DNA of 43,151 nucleotides from Candidatus Aminicenantes bacterium JdFR-78 (GCA_002010665.1 MTON01000003.1:72839-115989); one strand, 5' to 3'; numbered from the stretch's first letter, positions 1,826-32,715 are shown. Numbers and translations are program-made. The notes: generated by a model from the sequence alone, not told the origin.

Positions 1826-1863
1826 TGAAAAATTTCCACTTAAATTTTAATTAGGGAGTAAAA

Positions 1864-3522: not shown

Positions 3523-3548
3523 AAGGCTGAATAATTAATTTGAAATCA

Positions 3549-4106: not shown

Positions 4107-4119
4107 GAGTCTCTCCAAA

Positions 4120-4485
4120 TTATAAGGTTTTTAATTCTATAGTCGAAAAAAACATTTTATTTCCATCAAAATCTATTAGAAAAGCTTTCATTTCATTTTT
4201 ATCGATTTTTAGGATAATATTTCCAGCAAAAAAAGGATTTAGGAATTTATTAATTGAAGTTTCTCCATCATTGAAAATGAAAAAACCTATTAATTTATTT
4301 TCAAATATCCTATTTATTTCTAAGAACTTATCTTCTGATGGAAAATCTGAACCAATAGGAATCATTTTTTCCACTACAATTCCATTTCCTCTTAAATGTC
4401 CTATTAATATTCCTTTAATTTTCAGATTGATTTTTCTTAGTAAATTTAATGTATCAGGAATTTCATGTGTAAGGAAAACTCTCAT
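4120..4485 (-). CDS. hypothetical protein, 121 aa
   Basis: I do not recognise this gene with confidence. It encodes a soluble alpha/beta-looking protein without signal peptide or membrane segment. The frame continues upstream to a TTG at 4521, which would overlap the transporter gene; the ATG at 4485 avoids the overlap and begins with a typical beta strand (M-R-V-F-L-T-H-E), so I prefer it although no strong ribosome site is visible. The pattern G-I-L-I-G-H-L-R-G-N-G-I-V-V-E-K recalls the core strands of JAB/MPN-fold domains, but the metal-binding His-x-His and Asp of JAMM peptidases are absent, so any such relationship is speculative. It sits between the DASS transporter and AMMECR1 genes in one transcription direction. 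Confidence 0.6.
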   Translation of the reverse strand: MRVFLTHEIPDTLNLLRKINLKIKGILIGHLRGNGIVVEKMIPIGSDFPSEDKFLEINRIFENKLIGFFIFNDGETSINKFLNPFFAGNIILKIDKNEMKAFLIDFDGNKMFFSTIELKTL

Positions 4486-4507
4486 CACTGGAATTATATA
4501 TAAAATT

Positions 4508-5953
4508 TTAATATATGCCAAGTAAAGGTATAAGATATGCTATGACTATCCAGATAATAATTATTCCAAAATTATTTAACCAAAAGCCAGTTTTTATCAT
4601 TCGCATTAGAGGAACCATTCGAGAGCCATATATAATTGCATTTGGAGGAGTTGCCACGGGTAACATGAAAGCAAAACTTGCTCCAATTGCACTTCCTAAA
4701 ACAGGTGGTAATGGATTAATATTAGCTGCTTCTGAGATGGCAATAATAATTGGAATTATCATATTTGCAGTGGCTGTATTTGAGGTTACCTCAGTGAAAT
4801 AAACACCTAATATTATTGCAAGTAAGGTAATTAGGGAGGAACTTCTTGATGAAAATAAACTTATAAATCCATTTCCAATTATTTTAGCAAGACCTGTTTC
4901 AAACATTTGAAATCCAAGAGATAATCCTCCACCAAATAAGATTAGTGTTCCCCAATCAATTTTTAATGCCTCGGAAATTGATAAAGTAAATTCTCCTTTT
5001 TTCCAGTTAACAGGCAATAAGAAAAGAACGCAGACTCCAATTAAAGCAGCAACTGATTCTGGTAGATGCTGGGATAACCATATATAAATGTTTGAATTCT
5101 TCCCGTAAATTAAAGCCACTATCCCAGGAGTTACCCATAGGGAAACTGTAATTGAGAAAGCAATGATAACATTTATTTGAGCTCTTGAGAGTTTTGTTTT
5201 TTTGTTTAAAGGAATTTTATATTCAAATTTATCCTTAGGAAGTTTTGACTTCAGAAGGAAAATCAAAAGGAAAAACATTGGGATCAGAATAAAAAAATTA
5301 ATGATCATCCACTGAAAAAATGTAATTTTATATTTTACGAATTTCTCGAGCATTCCAATTGCTATAAGATTAGGCGGACTTCCAATTGGAGTCCCTATTC
5401 CTCCTATCGAGGAGGAATAGGCTGCAAGAAGCATTAATACTATACTTAATTCTTTAAGACTTTTCTCTTTTAAACTTGATCGATAAGCGGTTAATAAGCC
5501 GAGTCCGATTGGATACATCATGGCAGTAGTTGCAGTGTTTGAGAGCCACATGGAGAGGAACAAAGTTACTCCACCAAATGCAAACAAAATACGAACAGGA
5601 CTTATGGAAATTGCTTTAAGAGATAATATTGAATTGGCGAATTTTTCATCCAGCTGGTGAACTCTCATTGCTCTTGCAAGAATAAAACTTCCAAGAAAGA
5701 GAAATATAATAGGATGAGCAAATGGAGAGAAGGCTTCCTTAGGCGAAGTTATTCCAAATGCTATAATTAATACAGGTATGAGTATTGCTGTAAGAGGAAT
5801 TGGTATTGCTTCAGTTATCCACCAGCATACCACTAAGAGAAATATGCATAAAAGATTATGAGCAGACGGTTTTTCCTTTAAAATTGGAGAAAAATAAGTT
5901 AATAGAAAGAGAAATGGACCCAAAAATAAACCTATTTTTTTTCTAAGTTCCAT
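4508..5953 (-). CDS. DASS-family (SLC13) sodium/dicarboxylate symporter
   Basis: 481-residue membrane protein of the divalent-anion:Na+ symporter family, importing succinate, malate, citrate or a similar anion. Both family S-N-T signatures are present: S-N-T-A-T-T-A-M-M near residue 138 and S-N-T-A-T-A-N-M-I near residue 394, each in a re-entrant hairpin. The G-G-I-G-T-P-I-G-S-P-P-N-L block near residue 186 is also typical. Eleven to twelve hydrophobic segments are visible and the length is normal. The start at 5953 lies inside the end of the methyltransferase gene (22-base overlap), implying translational coupling. The exact substrate cannot be assigned from sequence. Confidence 0.9.
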   Translation of the reverse strand: MELRKKIGLFLGPFLFLLTYFSPILKEKPSAHNLLCIFLLVVCWWITEAIPIPLTAILIPVLIIAFGITSPKEAFSPFAHPIIFLFLGSFILARAMRVHQLDEKFANSILSLKAISISPVRILFAFGGVTLFLSMWLSNTATTAMMYPIGLGLLTAYRSSLKEKSLKELSIVLMLLAAYSSSIGGIGTPIGSPPNLIAIGMLEKFVKYKITFFQWMIINFFILIPMFFLLIFLLKSKLPKDKFEYKIPLNKKTKLSRAQINVIIAFSITVSLWVTPGIVALIYGKNSNIYIWLSQHLPESVAALIGVCVLFLLPVNWKKGEFTLSISEALKIDWGTLILFGGGLSLGFQMFETGLAKIIGNGFISLFSSRSSSLITLLAIILGVYFTEVTSNTATANMIIPIIIAISEAANINPLPPVLGSAIGASFAFMLPVATPPNAIIYGSRMVPLMRMIKTGFWLNNFGIIIIWIVIAYLIPLLGIY

Positions 5954-8364: not shown

Positions 8365-8558
8365 TTATTACTATGTAAACAAATGTTTACATTAATGACA
8401 AAATTTGTCATTTAGGGAGAGATTTTAGGATAATTTTTCAATGATTGAGTAAAAAATTTTTAAAATTTTTACTTACAATATTTTCTAACACCTTGATATT
8501 ATTGAATTTCTAAAATCTTAAAAATTTTTTCAAGTTTTTTGCCTTTTTTAGTACTAAA
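8365..8558 (+). promoter_or_regulatory. composite palindromic control element, copy 1
   Basis: Three perfect palindromes lie in a fixed array: TGTAAACAAATGTTTACA at 8374-8391, TGACAAAATTTGTCA at 8396-8410 (four bases later), and TTTAGTACTAAA at 8547-8558. The block starts with TTATTACTATG at 8365. The same array recurs inverted at 29445-29639 with the same four-base spacing and nearly the same distance from first to third palindrome (173 versus 174 bases). A shared TTTTCAAGTTTTT segment lies just before the third palindrome. Both copies point at a small gene 18-30 bases downstream (here 8577). I infer operators for one or more dimeric regulators; the identity of the regulator is unknown. Confidence 0.75.
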
Positions 8559-8576
8559 TTATATGGAGGGATAAAA

Positions 8577-8930
8577 ATGGAGGAAAAATTAAGATTAAGG
8601 GGGCTGACAACAGCAAATGATAAATTCAGTTTTTTACTGTTTAATTATTCCAAACAGCCGTATTTTATTCATTATATAAAATTTAAATGGTGGATAAAGA
8701 ATGGGGTTGGTAAAAAATATTTCACTCTGAGCAAAATAATAAATAAATGGATTAATAATTTTATATATGAATTTGCAGATTATTATTTTAATATTTTAGA
8801 ACCAAAAGAAGTAATATCTAAGGAAATAAAAGAAGGAAAAGATATAAGGGATGTTCTAGGTATTGAAGCACAAGTTTACTACTATAAAGATTATAGAGAA
8901 AAAAGAGTATTAAAGTTCAGAATACTTTAG
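8577..8930 (+). CDS. hypothetical protein, 117 aa, downstream of the palindromic element
   Basis: I do not recognise this protein. It is 117 residues, rich in Lys, Tyr, Phe and Trp, with no signal peptide, membrane segment or Cys motif. The middle (residues 45-75) looks helical, and the end may be beta. A strong ribosome site (GGAGGG, eight bases before the ATG) supports it as a real gene. It stands alone, preceded by the composite palindromic element and followed by a hairpin, so it appears to be a single-gene transcription unit under that control. The gene behind the other copy of the element encodes an AraC-type regulator; I see no sequence relation between the two proteins. Confidence 0.65.
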   Translation: MEEKLRLRGLTTANDKFSFLLFNYSKQPYFIHYIKFKWWIKNGVGKKYFTLSKIINKWINNFIYEFADYYFNILEPKEVISKEIKEGKDIRDVLGIEAQVYYYKDYREKRVLKFRIL

Positions 8931-20594: not shown

Positions 20595-20744
20595 ATGTTT
20601 GAAATTCTTTACAGCTTGGAGAGAGAAACAGCAAAAAACGAATTGGGTCCATCAATTGGAGTCGAACCGTGCATTAAGTTGTATTATGGTTTTATTGTCC
20701 CATGTTGGTATTGTATTGTGACTGGAGGATGCTCCGCCGCTTGA
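20595..20744 (+). CDS. putative RiPP precursor peptide, 49 aa
   Basis: Short ORF starting at an ATG with AGGAAG seven bases upstream. The first 25 residues are leader-like with charged residues (E-R-E-T-A-K-N-E). The rest is Cys-rich and hydrophobic: C26, then C37-x2-C40 and C46 in P-C-W-Y-C-I-V-T-G-G-C, ending S-A-A. A perfect hairpin follows 13 bases after the stop, then a PqqD-like remnant and a radical SAM/SPASM maturase remnant on the same strand. Size, composition and neighbours fit a ribosomally made, post-translationally modified peptide precursor. No homologue is known to me. As the maturase is broken, the locus may be inactive unless another maturase acts in trans. Confidence 0.6.
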   Translation: MFEILYSLERETAKNELGPSIGVEPCIKLYYGFIVPCWYCIVTGGCSAA

Positions 20745-20757
20745 AGATTTGATTGAC

Positions 20758-20784
20758 AAAGGGGGATTTTTTTTCTCCCCCTTT
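20758..20784 (+). terminator. hairpin between precursor and maturase remnant
   Basis: AAAGGGGGA (20758-20766) pairs perfectly with TCCCCCTTT (20776-20784), a nine-base stem with a T-rich nine-base loop, followed by a pyrimidine tract. It could end the precursor transcript or act as an attenuator so that less maturase than precursor is made, an arrangement common in RiPP loci. Confidence 0.65.
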
Positions 20785-20816
20785 CTTTTCTTTGGTGGTC
20801 AAAAAACATTAAATTT

Positions 20817-21893
20817 TTGGAGAAGAATGATAAGGCAATTATTATAAATTTAGAAACTAAAGAGTTTATAAAAATAAAACGTGATGGTCTGGAATTTTTG
20901 AATAAAGCGAGTAAAAAAGTATTAAAACATTGAAAAAAGAAATAAATAATAGAGCAGAGCAGGCTCAGTTTATCAGACTAATCAAATATTTGAAGAAAAG
21001 AAAGTATATTCTTCACTCACCAAATAGCCCACAAAAGAAAAAATATACAGATTTTCCTAAAATGGCGTATTACGAAGCTTCTGAAAGATGTAATTTGAAT
21101 TGTCAATTCTATTATGCTAATCCCAAAATACAAAGCCCTCCCTATCAAGGAAATACTTTTTTTATCCAAACGAATTATAGACAAATTATATGAGTTAAAT
21201 ATAGACTATATCCAGGTAAGCATAGAATCTTATGAAGAAAGAACTCATGACGCTTTAAGAGGTAAAGGAAATTTTAAAAAGTGCTTGAAAGCAATTGAAT
21301 ATCCAAAAGATGCAGGGTTTACAAAGGAACAATTGTATATTACTGTGACGATCACTAAACTTAATGAGAATGCTTTAACAAGATTTTCAGAATTTGCCAA
21401 AAAGTTAGGAGTAAAGTCAAGTTTTAGCTTTTTCCAGCCAGTTGGTAGAGCTTTTAAAAATGAGAAATGTGCTTTAGGGAGGAAAAAACTTCTGAGATTT
21501 TTCTATGAAAGTATAAAAAAGGGAGTAATGGTAGAACTTAATGAAAGTTGTCTGAGTGTTCCGAATCTAAGAGTAACAAATGAAATAGTTCCTTCCATCA
21601 AAAATCATTGTGGAATGGTAATAAAAACTCTTGGAGTTAAGGAAAATGGAGACATAGTTCCTTGTCATCTATTCTTTTCTTCAAAAGAATTTGTTTTAGG
21701 GAATATTTTAAATGAGGGAATAATTAAAAAACTTGTGCATTTTTTGAATACTTTGCCAACAATAGATGAAATTGAAGAATGTAATAAATGTGATATTAGA
21801 TACTTTTGCGGAAATGGTTGTTGGGCAAGTGTATATTGGCGCCATGGGCACTTCAAAGGGAGAAACCCTTATTGCAGAGCTCTTTATGATTAG
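20817..21893 (+). pseudogene. decayed radical SAM/SPASM peptide maturase with N-terminal PqqD-like segment
   Basis: The remnants of one maturase are spread over three frames. At 20817-20933 a 38-codon piece (D-K-A-I-I-I-N-L-E-T, then D-G-L-E-F-L) looks like a PqqD/RRE peptide-recognition segment. From 20930 the frame gives a linker and the radical SAM motif C-N-L-N-C-Q-F-Y-Y-A-N-P, in which the third cluster cysteine is Tyr. After about 21140 the homology moves to the frame of 21114-21893, and the early barrel strands, including the G-G-E-P segment, are missing. The C-terminal half is well kept: a full SPASM pattern with C-x12-G-x4-C, then C-x2-C-x5-C-x3-C and a final C. A missing Cys, frameshifts and an internal deletion make activity unlikely. 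Confidence 0.8.
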
Positions 21894-22022: not shown

Positions 22023-22561
22023 TTATTTTTCTTGTACTATTATGCTATCAAAATATTTTAGTTGAATTAACCATAATTGTGAAAGTATCCAATCAACCAT
22101 CAAGAAAGAAGGTCTCGGTTCCTCTCCTGCTGTGGCTCTGTAACTACTCCACTTCCACTCTTCTGGTCTCTTTACTAATCCTGCTCTCACAGGATTTAAA
22201 ACTACATAACGACATAATGTTAAAAAATAATCTCCTTCTCTACAAGTAATGCTTTGAGTCTCCCTTGAAAAAGATGCCCAATACGCTCATGTCTTCGATT
22301 AAACCTCTGTGTATAGACATCATTTAACTGCCTCATCCCTCTTGATAAGTTACCTTCTAGACTCTCAATTATTAAATGATAATGATTTTCCATAAGACAA
22401 TATGCATGACAAAGCCAGTTGAATCTCTCCACTACTAAACTCAATACTTCAAGAAAATTCCTTTTATCTTCTTCATCAAGATAAATATTTTGTTTCGCAT
22501 TACCTCTGGAAGTAATATGATAAACTGCACCAGGAAATTCTATGCGCAATGGTTTTGCCAT
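22023..22561 (-). pseudogene. REP-associated tyrosine transposase (RAYT), frameshifted
   Basis: An IS200-like Y1 transposase of the REP-associated group, broken. The first 113 codons (22561 to 22220) carry F-P-G-A-V-Y-H-I-T-S-R-G-N and the His-x-His metal site in M-E-N-H-Y-H-L-I-I-E, then G-H-L-F-Q-G-R. Near 22228 a one-base deletion moves the frame; the shifted frame continues with L-C-R-Y-V-V-L-N-P-V-R-A-G-L-V and W-K-W-S-S-Y, the conserved second half, until homology fades and the frame stops at 22023. Such proteins mobilise REP palindromes and are usually single-copy domesticated genes; this one looks dead. Confidence 0.85.
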
Positions 22562-23031: not shown

Positions 23032-23274
23032 TTATCCAGGGAATTCCATACAAAATACTCTGTAATACCAATCTCCTCTCCAACACTCTATATAACATTC
23101 ATCAAACTCTATTAAATCACCACTACATGACCAACTTGGATTTGGGCAAAGAAGCTCTGCACAGCTAAGTTCATAATTATAGGAATATTCGATAAACAGA
23201 GACAAGAATGTCAAAATTCCTGTAATTAATGAGCAAATAATGAGGAATTTTTTAAAATATTTTTTTTGAAACAT
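23032..23274 (-). CDS. secreted six-Cys peptide A, 80 aa
   Basis: Small exported peptide. Residues 1-10 are basic and 11-30 form one hydrophobic segment (signal peptide or anchor). The exported part has six cysteines at 38, 43, 50, 60, 64 and 75. Peptide B next door has the same layout: C-x4-C-x5/6-C-x9-C-x3-C-x10/11-C. I chose the ATG at 23274, which has GGGAGG eight bases upstream; an ATG at 23295 overlaps peptide B and lacks one. It is the last gene of the cluster, 17 bases after peptide B. Three disulfides are likely in the exported form. Function unknown. Confidence 0.75.
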   Translation of the reverse strand: MFQKKYFKKFLIICSLITGILTFLSLFIEYSYNYELSCAELLCPNPSWSCSGDLIEFDECYIECWRGDWYYRVFCMEFPG

Positions 23275-23291
23275 TTTAATACCTCCCATAT

Positions 23292-23513
23292 TCATACTTT
23301 AATAGGGCATTGTATTTCTCTCCAGCCGACTCCGCTACTCCAGCAACGAATTGTACAGCCCTTTACTTCTATAACATCAGCAATACAGCCTCTAATATAT
23401 GGACAGGCCGTCCACATACAACTCCATTCAGCAGAAAAAATAAAGAAATTTAAAGAACCCATGAATATAAATGTAGCCATTACCAACAGAATGAATTTTT
23501 TGATTTTCCTCAT
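23292..23513 (-). CDS. secreted six-Cys peptide B, 73 aa
   Basis: Small exported peptide with a basic N-terminus (M-R-K-I-K-K), a hydrophobic segment at residues 7-26 and a plausible signal peptidase region around S-A-E. The mature part has cysteines at 32, 37, 43, 53, 57 and 69, matching peptide A in spacing although other residues differ, which points to a disulfide-held scaffold with variable surface. A GGAGG ribosome site lies seven bases upstream. It follows the propeller gene at 23550 by 36 bases and is probably co-transcribed. I know of no named family for it. Confidence 0.78.
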   Translation of the reverse strand: MRKIKKFILLVMATFIFMGSLNFFIFSAEWSCMWTACPYIRGCIADVIEVKGCTIRCWSSGVGWREIQCPIKV

Positions 23514-23549
23514 TTAAAACCTCCATTTTAAAAATTTTTAATAAAAAAA

Positions 23550-24638
23550 TTATACTTTTCTAATAGTAAATACTTCTATTTTTTCTTTAGGAAAACATCG
23601 TAAAATGTAAAATAATAATTGTCCATTACTTTCTTCTAACACAAAAAAATCCCTTATTAAATCTTGAGGCCCTGTTTCAGCCCAAAATACTTTTCTCAGT
23701 TGAAAATTGTTATCAAATTCCAAAATTTCAATTCGAGGATAAGTTATAAGAACATAAATTGCATTTTTTGTAGAATAAATATTTGTAATTGTCTCATAGA
23801 AACTCCTTACCCCTTTTATGAATTTTGATTTCATATTTATCTTGGATTTTTCATTTACATATTTATGTTTTAGTTTTATCTCTAATAGAAGCTTTCCGTC
23901 TTTTGAATATTTTCTTAAATAATCAAAACGGGTCCATGCAACTATTAATTCTTCATTAGGTGACATCGTTAATATAACATCATTGGGAGTATTATTTCCG
24001 AAATTAAGCCTCTTTCCAAAAGATCTCACCAATTCTCCTTTCATATTAAGAACTTCAATAAGAGGATATTGAGGGTCATAACTATGAGGATTTGTATATA
24101 TAAAACCATCCTTGTCAGCAACCATAGAGAAAATAGCTTTAAAACATTTAAAACCACCTAAATACTTTCCATCAGAATTAAAGATTTGAATTCTTCTATT
24201 CCCATCATCTTCAACAAATAAATGACCCTTTCCGTCAACACTTATTTCACTTGGCAACCAAAATTCCCCTGGTCCTTTTCCTTTTTTACCTATTTGTTTT
24301 AAAAATTTCCCATTTTTATCAAATTTTAGAACTCTGTGTCCAAATTGATTCAATACATAAATATTTTTATCTTTATCTATACACATCCAAAAAGCATTAT
24401 AAAAATATATTCCTTTCTCTTCTAATTCCTTAGACGGAAATGAAAATAATTTGCGTAATTTAATTGCACCTTTTGGCACAGGATATCGTTTCAAATCTTC
24501 TCTCCATTGTTTCATCCTTTTTTTTGCACCTTTTGTTAAATCGATCATTTGAGAATGGATTGAATTGAAATTTATTAATATAATTGAAAAAATACAGAAA
24601 GCGATTAAATAGTAAATATTCCTTTTCTTGAACATCAT
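23550..24638 (-). CDS. secreted six-bladed beta-propeller protein P1 (NHL-like)
   Basis: 362-residue exported protein. Residues 5-28 are a signal or anchor segment. The rest repeats an NHL-like blade pattern: D-K-x-x-N-I-Y-V-L, R-V-L-K-F-D-K-N-G-K-F-L-K-Q-I-G-K-K-G-K-G-P-G-E-F, then G-H-L-F-V-E-D-D-G-N-R-R-I-Q-I-F-N-S-D-G-K-Y-L, consistent with a six-bladed propeller of the 6-bladed beta-propeller family. It is a close paralogue of the gene at 24790, from tandem duplication. Such propellers usually bind peptides or other ligands; no catalytic motif is visible. An AGGAGG ribosome site precedes ATG-ATG at 24638. A leaderless peptide remnant lies just upstream. Confidence 0.85.
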   Translation of the reverse strand: MMFKKRNIYYLIAFCIFSIILINFNSIHSQMIDLTKGAKKRMKQWREDLKRYPVPKGAIKLRKLFSFPSKELEEKGIYFYNAFWMCIDKDKNIYVLNQFGHRVLKFDKNGKFLKQIGKKGKGPGEFWLPSEISVDGKGHLFVEDDGNRRIQIFNSDGKYLGGFKCFKAIFSMVADKDGFIYTNPHSYDPQYPLIEVLNMKGELVRSFGKRLNFGNNTPNDVILTMSPNEELIVAWTRFDYLRKYSKDGKLLLEIKLKHKYVNEKSKINMKSKFIKGVRSFYETITNIYSTKNAIYVLITYPRIEILEFDNNFQLRKVFWAETGPQDLIRDFFVLEESNGQLLFYILRCFPKEKIEVFTIRKV

Positions 24639-24641
24639 TAT

Positions 24642-24782
24642 TTAAAACCTCCTATTTTTAAATAAAAAATTATAAGGGCATGATATTTCTCCCTTGAGTT
24701 CTTTTACTATAGCAATAAATCTTCCACGATTATTTATACAAGATTTAACATCTGAACAAGATGAAATTACAAAACAACTCAT
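24642..24782 (-). pseudogene. leaderless remnant of a Cys-rich peptide gene
   Basis: A 46-codon ORF between the two propeller genes. It starts S-C-F-V-I-S-S-C-S-D-V-K-S-C, resembling S-C-M-W-T-A-C-P-Y-I-R-G-C of peptide B, and has E-I-S-C-P where peptide B has E-I-Q-C-P. The signal peptide is missing: upstream sequence runs straight into the 3' end of propeller P2. The two central cysteines are also missing. I read it as the mature part of a duplicated peptide gene whose leader was lost by deletion. Its end overlaps the ribosome site of the next propeller. Confidence 0.6.
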
Positions 24783-24789
24783 TTTAAAA

Positions 24790-25890
24790 TTACATTTTTT
24801 TCTTTGTTGAATTTGTAAATACTTCTATCTTATTTTCAGGAAAACATTGTAAAATATAAAATAACAATTGCCCATTGTCTTTCTCTAATACAAAAAAATC
24901 AAACCCTAAATATCGAGGAACTACATCAGCCCAAAATACATTTTCTAAATGAAAATTGTTATCAAATTTTAAAATTTCAATTCGAGGATAAGTTATAAGA
25001 ACATAAATTGCATTTTTTGTTGAATAAATATCTGTAATTGTTCGGTAGAGCCCCATCATCATGCTTTTAAATTTTGTCTCCATGTTAATTTTGGATTTTT
25101 CATTTACATATTTGTGTTTTAGTCTCGTTTCCAATAGTAGCTTTCCATCTTTTGAATATTTCCTTAAATAGTCAAAAGATTCCCATGCAACTATTAATTC
25201 CCCATTTGATGATATTGTCAATATAGCCTTACTATGAGCAAATGAGTAATTTCCAAAGTTAATTCTCTTGCCAAAAGATTTTACTAATTCTCCTTTCATA
25301 TTAAAAACTTCAATAAGAGGATATTGAGGATCAAAGCTTTGAGGGTTTGTATATATAAAACCATCTTTATCAACAACCATAGAGTAAATGGTTTTAAAAT
25401 ATCTAAAACTACTTAAATACTCTCCTTTAGAATTAAAAATTTGAATTCTTCTATTTATCACATCTCTGACATATAAATGACCTTTTCCATCCACATCTAT
25501 ATCCTTTGGACCTAAAAATTCTCCTGGTCCTTTTCCTTTTTTACCTATTTGTTTTAAAAATTTCCCATTTATATCAAATTTTAAAATTCTATGCTCAAGT
25601 TGACTTGATACATAAATATATTTGTCATTATCTACACATATGCGTAAGGCATTATATAAATATATTCCTTTCTCTTCTAATTCCTTAGATGGAAATGAGA
25701 ATAATTTGCGTAATTTAACTGCACCTTTTGGCACAGGATATCGTTTCAAATCTTCTTTCCATTTTTTAATTCTCTCTTTCACATCTTGCCTTAGATCTAC
25801 TACTTGAGAATTAGTTGAATTGAAATTTATTAGTATGATTAGAAAAATAAAAGAAGCAATTAAATAATAAATATTTTTCTTTTTAAACAT
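24790..25890 (-). CDS. secreted six-bladed beta-propeller protein P2 (NHL-like)
   Basis: 366-residue exported propeller, closely similar to P1 along its length (same R-Y-P-V-P-K-G-A and P-S-K-E-L-E-E-K-G-I-Y blocks, same G-K-K-G-K-G-P-G-E-F blade turn). A hydrophobic signal segment spans residues 8-24. The ATG overlaps the stop of the redoxin gene upstream (TAATG), so both are made from one message. The divergence between P1 and P2 is spread through loops, as expected after a moderately old tandem duplication. Confidence 0.85.
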   Translation of the reverse strand: MFKKKNIYYLIASFIFLIILINFNSTNSQVVDLRQDVKERIKKWKEDLKRYPVPKGAVKLRKLFSFPSKELEEKGIYLYNALRICVDNDKYIYVSSQLEHRILKFDINGKFLKQIGKKGKGPGEFLGPKDIDVDGKGHLYVRDVINRRIQIFNSKGEYLSSFRYFKTIYSMVVDKDGFIYTNPQSFDPQYPLIEVFNMKGELVKSFGKRINFGNYSFAHSKAILTISSNGELIVAWESFDYLRKYSKDGKLLLETRLKHKYVNEKSKINMETKFKSMMMGLYRTITDIYSTKNAIYVLITYPRIEILKFDNNFHLENVFWADVVPRYLGFDFFVLEKDNGQLLFYILQCFPENKIEVFTNSTKKKM

Positions 25891-26909
25891 TATTTACTAC
25901 CTCCCATTTTTTTATATAAAAAATCAAAAAAATCTTTAAAACATTGACAATTGGGTTCTGCTACTTTGATAATTTCTCCTTTTTTATTAACTAAAAAAAC
26001 TATATTTGTTAAATCAGATATTCTAAATTCTTTAATTAACTGATTCCATTTATGACTTAGATTCTCATCTGCGATAATAATTTTGAAATTTATTCTCAAT
26101 TGATTTTTAAGATTCTTAATATCTTGCTTTGTGAAAGTAGTGGGCAATATTGTTAGAAAAAAGAAGTTGCTATTATTTAATTTATGTAATTCATTTAATT
26201 TATTGATTATTTGACCACTTAAGCATGTCATACATATATCAATAAACATAGATATCACAAAATATTCAGCTTTTTCATTCATAATAATATCACTAATTTG
26301 CTTAAACCACTTAAAATTTTTAGTGTTTTCTCCTTCCTTAATAAAATAAGAAATTGAGAATTTTTTATTTTCTAAGATATTCATTAAGTATGGCTTAACC
26401 CCTTCTTCATAACCAACAATATTTATATTACTTTTAATTAATTTTCCTGTTTTATCAAAAATATAAAAGCTTTCACAACATTGAGAAGCACGAAAAATTC
26501 TCTTTAATTTTTCATAATCTTCTCTGACTACAAATATATTATTTCCAAACAATAAGAAATTTTTTAAAAATTTTTTAAAATCTTTCACGAATGCAATAAT
26601 TATAAAATTTTTATAATCATGATATTTAAAGTAAACTTTTTTTAATAATTCAATATCATTTGATGATATTGGATTTACAAATTGTATATAAATAAAATTT
26701 CCTATAAGATTATTTGACTTTATTTCGTTTCCATAAATATCCTTTACAGTAAATGTTGGTAGAAAAGTAATTTCTTTTAAAGTAGTAGATTTTAGTGCAA
26801 AAAGATTTAATTTTTCTTGTTTAAAGAATAACACTATTCCAAATAATATTATGAAAAATACTAAATGGAAGAGAAACTTTCTATCTTTAGCAATGTTTTT
26901 GCAAATCAT
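25890..26909 (-). CDS. membrane-anchored double thioredoxin-like protein
   Basis: 339-residue protein with one N-terminal anchor (residues 11-30) and two thioredoxin-fold halves facing outwards. The first half (about 45-185) starts F-T-V-K-D-I-Y-G-N-E-I like TlpA/AhpC proteins but has no CxxC in the expected place; C144-C145 come later, before F-Y-I-F-D-K-T-G. The second half (about 205-335) has C226-M-T-C229, a CxxC redox pair, and ends with N-C-Q-C (C321, C323). It is coupled to propeller P2. I infer a thiol-disulfide role on envelope or secreted proteins, possibly the Cys-rich peptides of the cluster. Confidence 0.72.
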   Translation of the reverse strand: MICKNIAKDRKFLFHLVFFIILFGIVLFFKQEKLNLFALKSTTLKEITFLPTFTVKDIYGNEIKSNNLIGNFIYIQFVNPISSNDIELLKKVYFKYHDYKNFIIIAFVKDFKKFLKNFLLFGNNIFVVREDYEKLKRIFRASQCCESFYIFDKTGKLIKSNINIVGYEEGVKPYLMNILENKKFSISYFIKEGENTKNFKWFKQISDIIMNEKAEYFVISMFIDICMTCLSGQIINKLNELHKLNNSNFFFLTILPTTFTKQDIKNLKNQLRINFKIIIADENLSHKWNQLIKEFRISDLTNIVFLVNKKGEIIKVAEPNCQCFKDFFDFLYKKMGGSK

Positions 26910-27002
26910 GTCTATCCTCCGAACCGAAGCTATCTCTTTGAAAAAATACTTTTAACTTCCATTATAGTTAATTCTCTTATAAGAAAATTTATTTATCAAA
27001 AA

Positions 27003-27060
27003 TCAGGAAGTCAAGAATTTTTTGTTAGTAAATTTTGGAAATTTGTTGGTAAATCTTTTT
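27003..27060 (-). other. short block resembling the 3' end of the AraC gene
   Basis: Read on the minus strand, this block encodes F-T-N-K-F-P-K-F-T-N-K-K-F-L-T-S-stop, resembling the end of the AraC-type gene (F-N-N-K-I-G-K-F-N-N-K-K-F-L-T-L-stop). The DNA identity (GTCAAGAATTTTTTGTTA) also carries the TTGAC that is a possible -35 box in both places. It may be the relic tail of a second AraC gene, or a shared promoter segment. The rest of the 207-base gap 26910-27116 shows nothing else. Confidence 0.4.
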
Positions 27061-27116
27061 ATAAAATTTATATAAAAAATGTGATTGTAAAATTTCAAGA
27101 AAATTATTAATAAATG

Positions 27117-27650
27117 CTATAGCGTATTCTGAATAAGTATTTTAAGTTTACTCTCGGTTTTCCAATTAGAAAGAGGACCTTCCACATAGTAAATTTGATT
27201 TTTATCATTTAAAAGTATTTTTATAGGAGTTTTTCTTATTCCAAAATTATAGCCCCAAGGGCTCTTTCCTGTAATATAAATTGGAAAATCCCATTTCATA
27301 TTTTTTATAAATTTCTCGACTAATTCTTTATATGGATGGCTTACTAATCCAAAACATTTCACATTTTTCATTTCACATAAATTCGCTAAATAAGAAATCT
27401 CCTCCAAGCAGTAAGGACAATCTTCCGGTGAAAAAATAATAACTAAAGTCCATTTAGATTTGTTGTTCATTAAATGCTTTAATAAATATGTTGATAGAAT
27501 TTGTTTTATTTTGGGATAATTTATATCTAAGCTCTTGTATTTATCATATTTCCTAAGTTTTTCTCTTAATTTATAATTTTGGAATGTAAGAAAAATACTT
27601 AATAAGATAATCAGAATCAAAATTATTAAATAAAATGCTTTATTTTTCAT
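27117..27650 (-). CDS. membrane-anchored thioredoxin-like protein with CPYC motif
   Basis: 177-residue redoxin. Residues 5-23 form a membrane anchor; a short basic linker follows, then a thioredoxin-like domain with I-F-S-P-E-D-C-P-Y-C-L-E-E (C78, C81), a CPYC centre as in glutaredoxins, and a cis-Pro region R-K-T-P-I-K-I-L-L. It overlaps the end of propeller P3 by four bases (ATGA type), so the pair is translationally coupled. It may donate or remove electrons from disulfides of secreted proteins. Confidence 0.78.
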   Translation of the reverse strand: MKNKAFYLIILILIILLSIFLTFQNYKLREKLRKYDKYKSLDINYPKIKQILSTYLLKHLMNNKSKWTLVIIFSPEDCPYCLEEISYLANLCEMKNVKCFGLVSHPYKELVEKFIKNMKWDFPIYITGKSPWGYNFGIRKTPIKILLNDKNQIYYVEGPLSNWKTESKLKILIQNTL

Positions 27651-28699
27651 TTCATTTTAAATTTGTAAATTTCAATGATGTATTGTATTTTTCCCTTTTT
27701 TTCAAGAATTTTCAAAAAGTAAAATTTCCCATTTTTTACCCTATGAAGATTTAAATCTGTCCTAATTCCGCTTGCTATTAACTTTCCACTATTATGATTA
27801 TAAATATCAATGAAATATTCCCAATTATTTGAACCGAGATAATTTTTAGAAATCACTGCTACTTTATCATCAAAAACAAAAACACCTTTAACATAAGTAA
27901 AATTCTTTTCCCATTCTTCCATTTTATTTTTATCTCGTTCAATTTCTTTGGTAAGTCTTTTGGGTTCTTTATAATATTTATGTCTCTTTCCAAAACTTTT
28001 TAGAAATTTTCCATTCTTATCAAACACTTTAACCAAATAGTTTACAGGTTGAACAGTATAAATATTGTCATATTCGTCTAAGTCAAAATATATGGAACGA
28101 TAGCGTCCAAGGCCTAATCGAATTACTTTTTCATCTATTGGGCAAAAAGACTTAAGATATTTTCCTTCACGACTATACATATGAATCATTTGCGCAGTAT
28201 ATGAATCTCCTCTCCATCTTTTCTTTGGTCCTCCAATTAAAACGTTGCCTTCGCTGTTTACTGCAATGCAAGTAGAAGGAATGTGACCATCGGTCGTAAT
28301 AAATGAGTTAACATACTTACCATTTGAGTCAAATTCTGTAACCCTATTAAATAATGTAACTACGAAAACATGATCTTCCTCATTTATAAAAATGGATTCA
28401 GGCATCATTGGCAACTCGCCCGGCCCTTGTCCTTTTCTTGCAATTAAAACTGGAAAATTTCCGTTTCTGTCAAATCTGTACAACTCACTATTAGTCCAAT
28501 CTATAATCCATATATTTCCTTTACTGTCAATATCAATATCTTCGATGGATGATATTATAACTCTCTTGTCTTCTTTTAAGATAATAGTTTTTTCTTTTGA
28601 AAAAAATTTTTGAAAGTCTTCCGCTAAGCAGATTCTAAATTCCAAGAATCTTAAAATAATATATAATATAACTATAATTCTTATATTTTTCACGAACAT
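27647..28699 (-). CDS. secreted six-bladed beta-propeller protein P3 (NHL-like)
   Basis: 350-residue exported propeller. Residues 5-26 form a signal segment ending near C-L-A-E-D. Blade motifs include G-N-I-W-I-I-D-W-T-N-S-E-L-Y-R-F-D-R-N-G, A-R-K-G-Q-G-P-G-E-L, and V-K-V-F-D-K-N-G-K-F-L-K-S-F-G. It is more divergent from P1 and P2 than those are from each other. It lies 97 bases after peptide D and overlaps the CPYC redoxin gene, so one module reads peptide, propeller, redoxin. Confidence 0.85.
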   Translation of the reverse strand: MFVKNIRIIVILYIILRFLEFRICLAEDFQKFFSKEKTIILKEDKRVIISSIEDIDIDSKGNIWIIDWTNSELYRFDRNGNFPVLIARKGQGPGELPMMPESIFINEEDHVFVVTLFNRVTEFDSNGKYVNSFITTDGHIPSTCIAVNSEGNVLIGGPKKRWRGDSYTAQMIHMYSREGKYLKSFCPIDEKVIRLGLGRYRSIYFDLDEYDNIYTVQPVNYLVKVFDKNGKFLKSFGKRHKYYKEPKRLTKEIERDKNKMEEWEKNFTYVKGVFVFDDKVAVISKNYLGSNNWEYFIDIYNHNSGKLIASGIRTDLNLHRVKNGKFYFLKILEKKGKIQYIIEIYKFKMK

Positions 28700-28796
28700 C
28701 CCTTCTTTTCTTTCTAAACTTCGAAAAAATTTGTTAATTGTACTCTTTTTTACATTTATTCTCTATAAATTAATAAAGGAATTCTCTAATGTCTCT

Positions 28797-29006
28797 TTAT
28801 GGAATTATTATACAGGGAGCACAATCTTTTTCAGTTGGATCGCATACGCAAATTATTTTACCTTCGTCATTAGTATATTTATCACCCCATGCTCCGGCAA
28901 AAGCAGGTCTGGGATTAAAGAACAAATTTTGAACTACTGTCCATGCGAGAAAACACACAAATAAAACCAAGAAAAGGTTTGCTATTAAAATCACTCCTTT
29001 TTTCAT
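28797..29006 (-). CDS. secreted Cys-rich peptide D, 69 aa
   Basis: Small exported peptide: basic start (M-K-K), hydrophobic residues 5-30, then the processing-like motif P-R-P-A-F-A-G (residues 32-38), which matches P-E-K-A-I-A-G in peptide E as P-x-x-A-x-A-G. The mature part is about 32 residues with C53-x-C55 and C62-x2-C65. A strong AAGGAGGG ribosome site precedes the ATG. The layout recalls the NVEALA-type leader peptides found next to six-bladed propellers in Bacteroidetes, but the N-V-E-A-L-A string itself is absent. A promoter is predicted just upstream in the AraC gene end. Confidence 0.75.
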   Translation of the reverse strand: MKKGVILIANLFLVLFVCFLAWTVVQNLFFNPRPAFAGAWGDKYTNDEGKIICVCDPTEKDCAPCIIIP

Positions 29007-29033
29007 TTTATACCCTCCTTTGCAATTTTTTGC

Positions 29034-29062
29034 ATTTTAAAATTAAATCTTCACAATGTCAA
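29034..29062 (-). promoter_or_regulatory. predicted promoter of the peptide D/propeller P3 unit
   Basis: On the minus strand TTGACA (29062-29057) and TAAAAT (29039-29034) are 17 bases apart. The -35 box lies inside the last codons of the AraC gene, and transcription would start about 20 bases before the peptide ATG. Confidence 0.55.
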
Positions 29063-29428
29063 GAATTTTTTGTTATTGAATTTTCCGATTTTATTATTAA
29101 AGTTTCCGATTTGATATTTTGCTCTGTATTCAGAAGGAGTAAGACCAATGAATCTCTTAAAATCATTACAAAAAGTCGACTTGGATTTATACCCTACCTC
29201 GTATGAAACCTCTTTTATGCTCAACGAATCATCTTTTAAGAGCTTCTTTGCCTTTTCGATTCTCCTCCGTTTTAAATAAGCTTTAAAGGTCATTCCAATC
29301 TCCCTTTTAAAAAGCTCACAGAAACGAGAATGCCCAAGACAACAATGCCTCATAAGAATCTTTAAACTTAAATTCTTTTCTAAATTTTCTTCTATGAACT
29401 TAAGAGCCTTTCTGACTCTTGAGTCCAT
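29051..29428 (-). CDS. AraC-family HTH regulator, DNA-binding domain only
   Basis: 125-residue protein consisting of little more than an AraC/XylS DNA-binding domain. The first helix-turn-helix covers about residues 20-45, and the second shows the conserved S-I-K-E-V-S-Y-E-V-G-Y-K-S-K-S-T-F-C-N-D-F-K-R-F-I-G, then L-T-P-S-E-Y-R, the classic C-terminal signature. There is no sensor domain, so control must come from a partner, abundance or a ligand-free mode. It sits in the middle of the peptide/propeller cluster and is itself behind composite palindromic element copy 2. It is a likely regulator of the cluster. Confidence 0.9.
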   Translation of the reverse strand: MDSRVRKALKFIEENLEKNLSLKILMRHCCLGHSRFCELFKREIGMTFKAYLKRRRIEKAKKLLKDDSLSIKEVSYEVGYKSKSTFCNDFKRFIGLTPSEYRAKYQIGNFNNKIGKFNNKKFLTL

Positions 29429-29444
29429 TTTCCCTTTTCATTAA

Positions 29445-29639
29445 TTTAGTACTAAAAACAGAGAAAAACTTGAAAATTTTTTTAACTTTTTTAAAAGCTC
29501 AGGAATAATAAGGATTCTGGAAATAGTCCAAATCAAGGGTAAATTAAAATTTTTATTGAAATTATATGAAACTAATCCAAAAATCTAAATTTTTGACAAA
29601 ATTTGTCAATAATGTAAATAAATGTTTACATAGTAATAA
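29445..29639 (-). promoter_or_regulatory. composite palindromic control element, copy 2
   Basis: Inverted second copy of the element at 8365-8558. It contains TGTAAATAAATGTTTACA at 29613-29630 (one base off copy 1), TGACAAAATTTGTCA at 29594-29608 (identical) and TTTAGTACTAAA at 29445-29456 (identical), oriented towards the AraC gene, whose ATG is 17 bases further on. This element makes up most of the 322-base gap 29429-29750; the remaining part (29640-29750) shows nothing I can name. The arrangement suggests autoregulation of the AraC gene or control by a shared unknown regulator. Confidence 0.75.
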
Positions 29640-29750
29640 TCAAGAAAATATAAGAAACTTAGAGCAAAAAGTAGAAATTATAAGTTAAGAATAAGACCTG
29701 AGGTATATTTAATGTTTAGTCTTAATTTATTTAAAATTCAATCTTATATC

Positions 29751-30782
29751 CTAAAATTTTATATGGTTCATTAAAGAAAGCAAATCTACCAAATCTTTTT
29801 TTAAATTCCATATCATCATTTTGAATATTTGGAATATAAATTCTTTATCACGGCTTGAATTCCAGGCATATATTCTTCCATTATCAATATTTATCCCAAA
29901 TATGGCTGGAAAATACTTCTGATTCCCTTTTAATTTACTCAATACCACTTCGGGTAAACTAATAATTTCATCTCCTCTGAAAGTTGGAAAAACTAAATCT
30001 TTTTTGGTAATCTTGTATTTTTTAAATTCTTTCTCATATATTTTAATTAAATCACTTTTGGGGGAGTAAACGTATATTTTATAGTCAACCGTATCAGTTA
30101 TGTAAAGATTATTATTTTTATCAAAATCAAAATCTGGTATAAATAATCCTATTGCATTAGGAATGGAGGTATCTCGAAACTCTCTTTTATTATCTTGATG
30201 AATGATTGAAAATTTAATTAGATTCTTATCACTTTTTACTAAAATAAATTTATTTCTTCTAGTAATTAAAAAATAAATATTATCCATATAATCAATTTTT
30301 ATCCGCATAACATACCATCTTTTAAATTTATCTGGAAAATGAGAAATTCTGTAAAAACTTCCATCTGGATTAAAAATTGTAACGATATCGATAAATGAAG
30401 CATATAAAAATCCTTTCGAATCTACTGCAAATGGAGGAATGAAATTCAAGAATTCCCCCGGTCCCTGTCCTTTTCTTCCGAAAGAATATAAAAACTCACC
30501 ATTTTTATTAAATTTATCAATTTTCATTTCAGAGATATCACCTACATAAACATTATTTCGCTCATCAATATAATATTCATCAATTATTTGATAAATGAGT
30601 GGTGAAACTAATTTATTTTCTTCGTCAGAACCAATTTCAATAAATAACTTAGTATCATCAAAAAGTTGAAAATAAGGTTCGGAAGAATTAGAACAATTAA
30701 TGAAAATTAATAAACAAAGGAAAAAAATAAATATTAAAAACTCTTTTAGCTCTTCCCTTATTTTCCTATCTTTCCAAAACAT
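29751..30782 (-). CDS. secreted six-bladed beta-propeller protein P4 (NHL-like)
   Basis: 343-residue exported propeller, possibly a lipoprotein: the hydrophobic stretch 15-29 ends in F-I-N-C-S-N-S-S, an imperfect lipobox with Cys30. Blade motifs include N-V-Y-V-G-D-I-S-E-M-K-I-D-K-F-N, G-R-K-G-Q-G-P-G-E-F and N-N-L-Y-I-T-D-T-V-D-Y-K-I-Y-V-Y. It follows peptide E by 71 bases, with a small hairpin just before its ATG and no evident ribosome site. It is the most divergent of the four propellers. Confidence 0.82.
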   Translation of the reverse strand: MFWKDRKIREELKEFLIFIFFLCLLIFINCSNSSEPYFQLFDDTKLFIEIGSDEENKLVSPLIYQIIDEYYIDERNNVYVGDISEMKIDKFNKNGEFLYSFGRKGQGPGEFLNFIPPFAVDSKGFLYASFIDIVTIFNPDGSFYRISHFPDKFKRWYVMRIKIDYMDNIYFLITRRNKFILVKSDKNLIKFSIIHQDNKREFRDTSIPNAIGLFIPDFDFDKNNNLYITDTVDYKIYVYSPKSDLIKIYEKEFKKYKITKKDLVFPTFRGDEIISLPEVVLSKLKGNQKYFPAIFGINIDNGRIYAWNSSRDKEFIFQIFKMMIWNLKKDLVDLLSLMNHIKF

Positions 30783-30787
30783 ATGAT

Positions 30788-30809
30788 AATCTCTATTTTC
30801 TTAGAGATT
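30788..30809 (-). repeat. hairpin between peptide E and propeller P4
   Basis: AATCTCTA and TAGAGATT form a perfect eight-base stem with a six-base loop, ending five bases before the propeller start codon on the minus strand. There is no T tract, so it is more likely an mRNA processing, stability or translation-control hairpin than a terminator. Confidence 0.45.
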
Positions 30810-30853
30810 TATTTAACCTTAATGTAAAAATGTGTCATAGATTTTATTTGTCT

Positions 30854-31072
30854 TTAAAGTTCTTCTTTAACTATACAAAAAAGATAGAAAGTACATACAC
30901 AAGAACCACCTTTTTTACAAGGGTCACCTATTTTGAAACAATCCCAATCTGTAGTTGGACACAATGTTTCTTCTTCCCCGGCTATTGCTTTCTCTGGAAT
31001 AATTTGAAATAAACCAAAAAGTAACACACATAAAATAGATACAATTAGTAAAAATGTTAGAAATTTTTTCAT
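30854..31072 (-). CDS. secreted Cys-rich peptide E, 72 aa
   Basis: Small exported peptide. Basic start (M-K-K), hydrophobic residues 4-25, then P-E-K-A-I-A-G (26-32), the same P-x-x-A-x-A-G motif as peptide D and a good A-x-A signal peptidase site. The mature part of about 41 residues has cysteines at 38, 45, 52, 58, 60 and 66. An AAGGAGGG ribosome site precedes the ATG, similar to that of peptide D. It starts 25 bases after the truncated redoxin and lies upstream of propeller P4. Confidence 0.75.
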   Translation of the reverse strand: MKKFLTFLLIVSILCVLLFGLFQIIPEKAIAGEEETLCPTTDWDCFKIGDPCKKGGSCVCTFYLFCIVKEEL

Positions 31073-31097
31073 TTGATTTTACCCTCCTTTCAAAGAT

Positions 31098-31389
31098 TTA
31101 TCCCAATGAATCCACCAAGGACTCATTGAATTCTCCTATTATAGATTGAATTATTCTTCCATCTGATAAAGTAATTAATGTAATCGGTAAAGACGAAAAT
31201 TTGATTCTCTCTTTATCTTTTTCTTCTAAACAAAAAACAGGAAATTTTATTATGATATTATTAATAAACTTTTTTGTCTTTGATATAGATGCAGTAGATA
31301 TACCAATAATTTCGTATTTTGATTTATATTTTTCATAAATCTTGTTCATTTTTCTATCATTTGAATACAACTCCAACAATCAATAGCAC
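31098..31389 (-). pseudogene. truncated thioredoxin-like gene, cut by the IS
   Basis: C-terminal part of a redoxin. The open frame gives K-I-Y-E-K-Y-K-S-K-Y-E-I-I-G-I-S and F-S-S-L-P-I-T-L-I-T-L, with the usual cis-Pro. Just upstream a second frame (31378-31367) reads C-W-S-C, a CxxC centre followed by I-Q-M-I-E-K, so a frameshift near 31350 separates the redox site from the rest. Upstream sequence stops at the IS boundary near 31390, which removed the N-terminal anchor. It was probably the third redoxin of the cluster. Confidence 0.7.
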
Positions 31390-32715
31390 GACTGTTCAAA
31401 ATTAATTAACATGTTGGTAGTTAAGAAAATATCTATTATATTTTTTATCTATCATCTCCTCTAAGAAGAGATTCCAATGAGAGGACAACTTAGTTTTGCT
31501 GATTGAATTATATCTCAGAATATTTCCAAGGATGACCCTTTGAGGAGAATTTTTTCCTCCATAGATTTCTCCTTTATTAAAACTCTTCTGCCTCAAGCCT
31601 CTGTGGGAAGAGAAGGATTTGACCCTGTGAGTCTTTTTAAAGCTCTTTCGCTTATTCCTCTTGGTAAGGCTCGTTCTCAGAGAGAACTTGCCCGTAAACT
31701 CTGCTTTGATGGGCGTTTGTGTTATCTCTGTGGATTTACTTATGGTCGAACACCATCTCATAACACCTTCACTGTATTCAGAAAAAGAGTTGGTGAGAGA
31801 AAATTCAAAGAGATTTTGAAGCATCTTATCTCTCAAGCTCTTTCCCTTAAAGAGAAAAAGAATACTTCCACTGTTATAGATTCTACTTCTATTAACGCTT
31901 ATTCTACTTGTGATAAAGATGCTCGATGGGGTGTAAAACCTGATGGTAAATTCTTTAAAAAGCTTCTCAAAGCTACTTTGAGAAAAACTAAAGTAAAAGA
32001 AGCTACTGCAGATGCAGGTTACGATAGTGTGGAGAATATCTCTTACTCTAAAAACGAAAAATACAACTTTATATTGCTTCTAATCCAAGAAACTCTAAAC
32101 AGATGAGTTTCCTCTCTCAGCTCTCTGTGACTCCAGAAGGTGAGGTTTTTTGTCCAGGAGGAAGAAAACTTATTTATTGGGGCATGCGAAAAGAAGACAT
32201 AGATTTAAATTTAGATGCCCTCTGTTTAGAGAAGAAAGGAGAATGTATTTTTCAAAAAACTTGTTGGAAAGGAAAATATGGGAGCGCTTTTTATATTAGT
32301 GAGTTTCGTAATCTTTCTCAAGAAATGAAAATCTTTAGAGCAACTGAGAAATTTAAAAAGGTTTATAAGAAAAGACAAGCTGTGGAAGGTTCTTCTCCCT
32401 CCTTAAGGAGAAGTTTTCTTTGGAAAGGAAACTCAAAGTAAGAGGAAGAGAAAATGTTAGAATCTATGTCTATATTGTACTTTCTGCTTATGTTGCTTCT
32501 CTTTTTAGCAAAGGATCTGGATAGAGAATAATTTTTTGGCTCTTTGAGATAGAAAAAGCAAAAAGGATGAATTTTCTCAAAACTGTAATTTAAAGCAAGA
32601 ATATAAGAATTTTCAATGAAAGGAGTAAAAACTCTTGAGTAAATCATTGCTCTTTTAAATTGATTTTTTCTTTCCTGAATTCCTTTCCTTCAAACTCTAT
32701 CATTTTTGAACAGTC
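31390..32715. mobile_element. decayed IS (DDE transposase, IS1182-like), about 1.3 kb
   Basis: Bounded by 12-base inverted repeats: GACTGTTCAAAA at 31390-31401 and its complement TTTTGAACAGTC at 32704-32715. It contains one broken transposase gene on the plus strand. I see no clear target duplication at the edges. It interrupts the 5' end of a redoxin gene in the peptide/propeller cluster. Confidence 0.75.
31477..32523 (+). pseudogene. DDE transposase pseudogene, IS1182/DUF772 type
   Basis: From the ATG at 31477 the frame meets a TGA at 31504 but homology continues: N-terminal DUF772-like region (F-D-P-V-S-L-F-K-A-L, S-Q-R-E-L-A-R-K-L, P-S-H-N-T-F-T-V-F-R-K-R), then the first catalytic Asp in V-I-D-S-T. 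After D-A-R-W-G the central part of the catalytic domain is shortened, with A-D-A-G-Y-D-S following too early. A frameshift near 32100 and another near 32390 precede the end, where the shifted frame gives F-S-L-L-K-E-K-F and V-L-S-A-Y-V-A-S-L-F. One stop, at least two frameshifts and a deletion show it is dead. Confidence 0.82.

What the first reader, a model, noticed from the sequence alone, without database searches (positions are those of the whole stretch)
23032..31389. Repeating module of secreted Cys-rich peptide, six-bladed propeller and thioredoxin-like protein
On one strand lie four propellers, four intact Cys-rich exported peptides, one leaderless peptide and three redoxins (two intact, one cut), with an AraC-type regulator in the middle. 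Peptides or their remnant sit directly 5' of propellers P4, P3 and P1; redoxins are translationally coupled to P2 and P3. Families involved: NHL/6-bladed beta-propeller, TlpA/thioredoxin fold, AraC HTH_18. I infer that the redoxins handle the peptides' disulfides and the propellers bind or carry the peptides. The layout resembles NVEALA-peptide/propeller neighbourhoods of Bacteroidetes but the peptides differ.
Basis: partly seen in the sequence, partly recalled or inferred. Interest (0 to 1): 0.87.

Follow-up and report, generated by a model that had tools for sequence, protein, structure and literature searches.

The report
Exported disulfide-peptide, propeller and redoxin cassettes
An uncultured bacterium of the class Aminicenantia carries many copies of an undescribed gene cassette that makes an exported cysteine-rich peptide together with its own matching propeller protein and thioredoxin-like protein, and the same cassette recurs in distant relatives, so it is a real system whose purpose is still unknown.

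Summary
The window holds four propellers, four intact signal-peptide/Cys-rich ORFs, one decayed peptide, two intact and one cut redoxin, and an AraC-type regulator, all on the minus strand. The same cassette occurs on five other contigs of this genome and in at least five other families of its class. Such peptides are nearly absent elsewhere (1 in 400 kb of background) but lie within 1 kb, same strand, of 13/30 propellers here and 20/71 in class relatives. Peptide and redoxin co-occur around propellers (Fisher p=0.0016 and 2e-5). Mature peptides have even Cys numbers in 33/37 cases (p=5e-7); ortholog pairs show dN/dS 0.3-0.5; peptide, propeller and redoxin types co-vary between families (r=0.50/0.51/0.81, p=0.0002). 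A peptide-only profile led to a complete new cassette in a family not used to build it. Best explanation: a disulfide-bonded exported peptide, matured by its own membrane-anchored redoxin (sometimes with MauE) and bound by its cognate six-bladed NHL-type propeller. Maturation, binding and end use (effector, signal or complex subunit) are inferred, not shown. The peptides match no Pfam or NCBIfam family and are not NVEALA.

The parts
31098..31379 (-). cut redoxin (C-terminal half of a thioredoxin-like fold)
   Evidence: AhpC-TSA 18.4 bits, below cut-off; an IS transposase lies directly upstream
31540..32441 (+). IS-type transposase (two frames), probably the cause of the cut redoxin
   Evidence: PF05598 45.4 bits; PF13751 24.8 bits, just below cut-off
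30854..31072 (-). exported Cys-rich peptide p4 (72 aa; A-x-A-like signal site; 6 Cys in mature part)
   Evidence: AGGAGG ribosome-binding site
29751..30782 (-). propeller P4 (lipoprotein-like N-terminus)
   Evidence: PF17170 19.2 bits, below cut-off; propeller profile built here
29429..29640 (-). conserved upstream region of the AraC gene with two palindromes (GTAAACATTTATTTAC, TTGACAAATTTTGTCAA)
29051..29428 (-). AraC-type regulator, DNA-binding domain only
   Evidence: HTH_18 86.7 bits; all five relatives in the genome lie in cassette loci
28797..29006 (-). exported Cys-rich peptide p3 (69 aa; 4 Cys in mature part)
27647..28699 (-). propeller P3 (signal peptide)
   Evidence: PF17170 42.7 bits
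27117..27650 (-). membrane-anchored redoxin R3, CPYC
   Evidence: Redoxin 31.2 bits, over cut-off
25890..26909 (-). membrane-anchored two-domain redoxin R2, CMTC
   Evidence: Redoxin 17.8 bits, below cut-off; its homologue L020 34-1032 passes the cut-off at 30.9 bits and is 41% identical
24790..25890 (-). propeller P2
   Evidence: PF17170 47 bits
24642..24782 (-). decayed, leaderless peptide of P2
   Evidence: tail DNA matches that of peptide 23292-23513
23550..24638 (-). propeller P1 (73% identical to P2)
   Evidence: PF17170 52.4 bits; AlphaFold2 pLDDT 87.3, NHL six-bladed propellers as best matches
23292..23513 (-). exported six-Cys peptide A
   Evidence: family alignment A4
23032..23274 (-). 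exported six-Cys peptide B
   Evidence: family alignment A4

Best explanation
Each cassette is a co-inherited unit of three exported products. A short Sec-type precursor is exported, losing its leader at an A-x-A-like site, and its 4-12 cysteines are paired by the cassette's own membrane-anchored thioredoxin-like protein, in some loci together with the membrane protein MauE. The folded peptide is then held or assembled by the cognate six-bladed NHL-type propeller, which is matched to the peptide type. Expression is set locally: an AraC-type gene with a conserved upstream region heads several cassettes in this genome, and sigma-54 activators neighbour others. Shown by computation: recurrence, linkage, co-variation, even Cys counts, purifying selection, propeller fold prediction. 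Inferred: export, disulfide formation by the redoxin, propeller-peptide binding. Open: the end use.
For: Cassette on six contigs of this genome and in families f4, f5, f6, f7, f8 and named Aminicenantes/Saccharicenans genomes. Peptides near propellers far above background. Even Cys number in 33/37 mature peptides, p=5e-7. Cross-family similarity correlations peptide-propeller 0.50, peptide-redoxin 0.51, propeller-redoxin 0.81, p=0.0002 with permutation inside families. CxxC in 19/26 redoxins and a hydrophobic N-terminal segment in nearly all. MauE in L021, L042, L050. dN/dS 0.31-0.51 in the peptide pairs where it could be computed. A peptide-first search found a complete new cassette in family f7. 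P1 predicted as an NHL six-bladed propeller.
Against: Seven of 26 cassette redoxins lack CxxC, and one (C22b) has no Cys at all. Co-variation may reflect only inheritance as a linked block, not physical contact. Some propellers with a peptide have no redoxin within 1 kb, and the reverse. No experiment; the peptide model is of modest confidence (pLDDT 75, pTM 0.41). Signal peptides were judged by a simple hydrophobicity and A-x-A rule, not by a trained predictor.
Confidence: 0.55

Rival explanations
1. Secreted effector: the peptides are bacteriocin-like or otherwise antagonistic disulfide-rich peptides with a dedicated oxidoreductase, and the propeller is the immunity or carrier protein.
For: Many copies per genome, great sequence diversity with conserved Cys frameworks, tandem unlike peptides beside one propeller (window, L016, L042, L193). 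Dedicated thiol-disulfide oxidoreductases are known from glycocin clusters such as sublancin (own knowledge; papers located, not read). ABC-2 permeases or ABC proteins beside some cassettes (L032, L101).
Against: No recurrent exporter, leader peptidase or small immunity gene; the peptides look Sec-exported; no match to bacteriocin families.
Confidence: 0.3
2. Subunit of a periplasmic or surface complex: the peptide is the small Cys-rich subunit of the propeller, in the manner of the methylamine dehydrogenase light and heavy chains, whose maturation needs MauD and MauE.
For: Same set of parts: Cys-rich small protein, propeller, thioredoxin-like protein and, in three loci, MauE; close pairing and co-variation.
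Against: The propeller is a six-bladed NHL type, whereas the methylamine dehydrogenase heavy chain is seven-bladed (own knowledge); no invariant Trp in the peptide family; frameworks differ too much between types for one shared cofactor.
Confidence: 0.3
3. Peptide signalling or sensing: the peptide is a secreted signal and the propeller its binding protein, under AraC-type control.
For: An AraC-type gene with conserved upstream palindromes heads cassettes; all five relatives in the genome are in cassette loci.
Against: The AraC proteins are bare DNA-binding domains without a sensor domain; none was noticed beside the cassettes of other genomes; the palindromic element also occurs away from cassettes (window 8365-8410).
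Confidence: 0.12
4. Coincidence: a large paralogous propeller family with unrelated small ORFs nearby.
For: Most propellers in these genomes have no peptide.
Against: Background of 1 per 400 kb, cross-family co-variation, even Cys counts, dN/dS below 1.
Confidence: 0.02

Closest known systems
NVEALA (PF14055) and DUF6520 (PF20130) small exported peptides of Bacteroidota, said to lie near six-bladed propellers or MauE (neighbourhoods from own knowledge, not tested here)
   Same: Short exported peptide, often Cys-containing, in multi-copy loci
   Different: PF14055 and PF20130 match none of these peptides in this genome; no NVEALA motif
Methylamine dehydrogenase maturation (MauA/MauB/MauD/MauE)
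   Same: Cys-rich small exported protein, propeller partner, thioredoxin-like protein, MauE
   Different: Six-bladed NHL propeller, variable Cys frameworks, no invariant Trp, most loci without MauE
MauE(+MauD)-associated Cys-rich precursor families predicted by decRiPPter in Streptomyces (PMC7794033)
   Same: Precursors with at least 8 Cys beside MauE/MauD homologues, proposed to be modified by them
   Different: The passages read mention no propeller; other phylum; not compared by sequence here
NHLRC2 / SOQ1 (thioredoxin-like domain fused to a six-bladed NHL propeller; PMC6107167)
   Same: Thioredoxin-like fold next to an NHL propeller, with a cleft between them; same propeller class
   Different: Here separate proteins and with a peptide; no CC(I/V)NC motif; the NHLRC2 Trx-like domain lacked oxidoreductase activity in an insulin assay
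Glycocin/bacteriocin clusters with dedicated thiol-disulfide oxidoreductases (sublancin SunA-BdbAB; own knowledge)
   Same: A disulfide peptide with its own oxidoreductase
   Different: No glycosyltransferase or dedicated peptidase-exporter in the window; Sec-type leaders

Membership tests
DUF5128 / PF17170 six-bladed propeller | Pfam gathering score 22.9 bits | tested here: met
   P1 52.4, P2 47, P3 42.7 bits; P4 at 19.2 is below
DUF5128 / PF17170 six-bladed propeller | six-bladed propeller fold | tested here: met
   P1 model pLDDT 87.3; best PDB matches are NHL domains, target-normalised TM 0.71-0.81 in the top 13; P2-P4 not modelled
NVEALA peptides | PF14055 match over 27 bits | tested here: not met
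   own genome: 3 hits of 11-14 bits, none at a peptide
NVEALA peptides | propeller neighbourhood (feature from own knowledge) | tested here: met
Methylamine dehydrogenase system | heavy chain as nearest structural relative | tested here: not met
   NHL domains head the list; it is not among the 50 best PDB matches shown
Methylamine dehydrogenase system | light chain with conserved Trp pair for the quinone cofactor | tested here: not met
   no invariant Trp in A4
Methylamine dehydrogenase system | MauE and a thioredoxin-like MauD | tested here: inconclusive
   MauE in three cassettes, redoxins in most; orthology to MauD not tested
NHLRC2/SOQ1 | Trx-like domain and NHL propeller in one chain with CC(I/V)NC | tested here: not met
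   separate genes; window motifs CPYC and CMTC
Disulfide bacteriocin cluster | antimicrobial activity | not testable with these tools
   needs an assay
Disulfide bacteriocin cluster | dedicated exporter or leader peptidase | tested here: inconclusive
   none in the cassette; ABC-2 permeases at L032, ABC proteins at L101 and a C39-like protein at L060 only
TlpA/Redoxin | Redoxin profile and CxxC | tested here: met
   R3 over cut-off with CPYC; R2 17.8 bits (below cut-off) with CMTC, homologue L020 30.9 bits

The most novel reading that the evidence does not exclude
A class-wide, previously undescribed peptide system in which each disulfide-rich exported peptide type has its own cognate NHL-type propeller and its own redoxin, i.e. 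a three-part, type-specific peptide maturation and binding machine, duplicated and diversified within genomes.
Probability: 0.4. Interest if true: 0.85.

Novelty: new variant of a known kind. Interest (0 to 1): 0.68.

Why it matters
The peptides are short and match no Pfam or NCBIfam family, so they are probably missed by annotation, yet they are the recurrent partners of a subset of a very large propeller family of unknown function (PF17170). The cassette gives a concrete partner set (peptide, propeller, redoxin) that can be tested, and may connect these propellers to the Cys-rich peptide/MauE loci reported elsewhere. Type-matched sets allow direct cognate versus non-cognate binding tests.

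Tried and rejected
Two-domain redoxin scan of named genomes found nothing. The first broad propeller alignment was too diverse to scan with. Plasmid search with P3 gave one distant propeller record only. The iterative redoxin search drifted into propellers in its last round through one bad seed (L095); those hits were removed before counting. Profile search of the six-Cys family against the PDB: none. Pfam and NCBIfam at loose thresholds: only noise. Anti-phage library: nothing. c-type cytochrome CxxCH motifs were looked for by eye in the peptides and not seen. Literature searches for NVEALA, DUF6520 and Aminicenantes with propellers: no papers in the held library. Bacteroidota neighbourhoods could not be fetched, so the NVEALA comparison rests on absence of a profile match and own knowledge. 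The palindromic element is not exclusive to cassettes. Two weak out-of-class hits of the peptide profile (L183, L184) have no propeller and are taken as chance.

Full report
What is there. The window is C4:72839-115989 of a 2.53 Mb, 42-contig genome. Its class is taken to be Aminicenantia: a same-class relative, G298, has a contig C174 of 28,428 bases, and a record found (L121, Candidatus Aminicenantes bacterium isolate A3_metabat2_scaf2bin.042, contig 174) has the same length; many of the named propeller relatives, among them the closest, are also Aminicenantes. One refinement: the leaderless ORF shares tail DNA with peptide A, and in relatives of this type the order is redoxin-propeller-peptide (L020, L050, L052). 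It is therefore best read as the lost peptide of P2 rather than as a 5' partner of P1.

Recurrence in the same genome. PF17170 gives 33 matches, in about 28 genes, in this genome. Cassettes with peptide, propeller and redoxin occur on C4 (window), C8, C11, C19, C22 and C38. Propellers with and without cassettes are clustered but not cleanly separated in the tree, which has few well-supported branches. The AraC gene has exactly five matches in the genome at E<=1e-5, itself included, and all five lie in cassette loci: C4, C8 (two, each with a stop inside the extended match) and C22 (two). A conserved upstream region with two palindromes precedes it on C4 and C22 and stands beside a decayed copy on C5. 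A copy also occurs at window 8365-8410, away from any cassette, so it is not exclusive.

Recurrence in relatives, and statistics. Loci around PF17170 hits in class relatives were fetched and scanned. The strict scan found 26 exported Cys-rich peptides, the window's included; all but one lay within 1 kb of a propeller, on its strand. In 400 kb of background from the same genome the strict scan found none and the loose scan one, without a ribosome-binding site. Within 1 kb and on the same strand, a peptide accompanies 13/30 propellers of this genome, 20/71 of class relatives, 5/127 in the named genomes (one of these, L121, duplicates G298), and 1/269 background genes. Peptide and redoxin co-occur around propellers: Fisher p=0.0016 (own) and 2e-5 (relatives). 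Most PF17170 propellers have neither, so the system concerns a subset of the family, chiefly those with a linked redoxin (8/9 own, 14/22 relatives have a peptide). The regions were chosen around propellers, and the background is from this genome only.

The peptides are real and disulfide-type. A simple cut of the leader leaves even Cys numbers in 33 of 37 peptides (p=5e-7); two of the four odd ones look mis-cut. Paralogues are not independent, so the p-value is generous. Homologous peptide pairs have dN/dS of 0.31-0.51 where it could be estimated; synonymous sites were saturated for one pair. One family (A4) has a shared framework with four invariant Cys columns across f1, f4, f5, f6 and f8. 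A search of 396 genomes with this profile alone found, beyond the sequences used to build it, a locus in family f7 (G102) with two six-Cys peptides, a CRPC redoxin and a propeller in a row, a second G102 locus with peptide remains and a propeller, and a second copy in G216 near a propeller fragment. Two weak hits outside the class have no propeller.

The three parts travel together. For 26 triplets chosen by adjacency, similarity between peptides tracks similarity between propellers and between redoxins. Restricting to pairs from different families and permuting within families gives r=0.50 (peptide-propeller), 0.51 (peptide-redoxin) and 0.81 (propeller-redoxin), p=0.0002 each. For example C19 is nearest to G111_C61 in all three parts, and C22a is nearest to the G298/G297 loci in all three. 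This shows old, block-wise inheritance. It does not by itself prove contact.

How it may work. P1 is predicted with high confidence as a propeller (pLDDT 87.3, pTM 0.84), and its best PDB matches are six-bladed NHL domains. The redoxins carry an N-terminal hydrophobic segment (weak only in the partial G186 row) and CxxC in 19 of 26. MauE stands in three cassettes. Proposed sequence: Sec-type export of the precursor; oxidation of its Cys by the anchored redoxin, with MauE where present; binding by the cognate propeller. All three steps are inferred from sequence. The seven redoxins without CxxC argue that some have lost or changed a catalytic role. The end use is open between a secreted effector and a small subunit of a surface or periplasmic complex.

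Compared with what is known. No member tested matches a Pfam or NCBIfam family above its cut-off, and neither NVEALA nor DUF6520 finds the peptides in this genome. A survey of Streptomyces predicted MauE/MauD-linked precursors with at least 8 Cys and proposed that these proteins modify them (PMC7794033); the passages read mention no propeller. NHLRC2 joins a Trx-like domain and an NHL propeller with a conserved cleft, though that Trx-like domain lacked activity in an insulin assay (PMC6107167). Searches of the held library found no paper describing this set in Aminicenantia. I therefore call it a new variant of a known kind (Cys-rich exported peptide with dedicated redox partner), with the type-matched propeller as the novel element.

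Noticed in passing
window 20595-21893 +: Small Cys-containing ORF (49 aa) followed by a radical SAM/SPASM gene that looks frameshifted; resembles a decayed RiPP pair.
   Followed up: partly
L014 (C36) 267-5400: Propeller beside a transglutaminase-like protein, a radical SAM/SPASM protein with an extra N-terminal domain, and ABC transporter genes; the contig ends before any peptide could be seen.
   Followed up: partly
window 8365-8410 +: Copy of the palindromic upstream element found before the AraC genes, here upstream of an unknown 117-aa ORF; partial copies also at C3:210419 and C21:109.
   Followed up: partly
L054 (G298 C174): Cluster of ten propellers in 20 kb with several peptides; next to one peptide type (8451-8660) sits a ~315-aa protein, also in L062, instead of a redoxin.
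   Followed up: partly
L052 17838-18050: Second near-copy of the G216 peptide with changed Cys/Trp positions and only a propeller fragment nearby; looks like a decaying duplication.
   Followed up: no
L101 9301-10886 and L032 15070-17823: Peptide-propeller-redoxin followed by an ABC ATPase and a membrane protein in L101; two ABC-2 permeases after the peptide in L032.
   Followed up: partly
window 22220-22561 -: IS200-like (Y1) transposase fragment close to the 3' end of the cassette.
   Followed up: no
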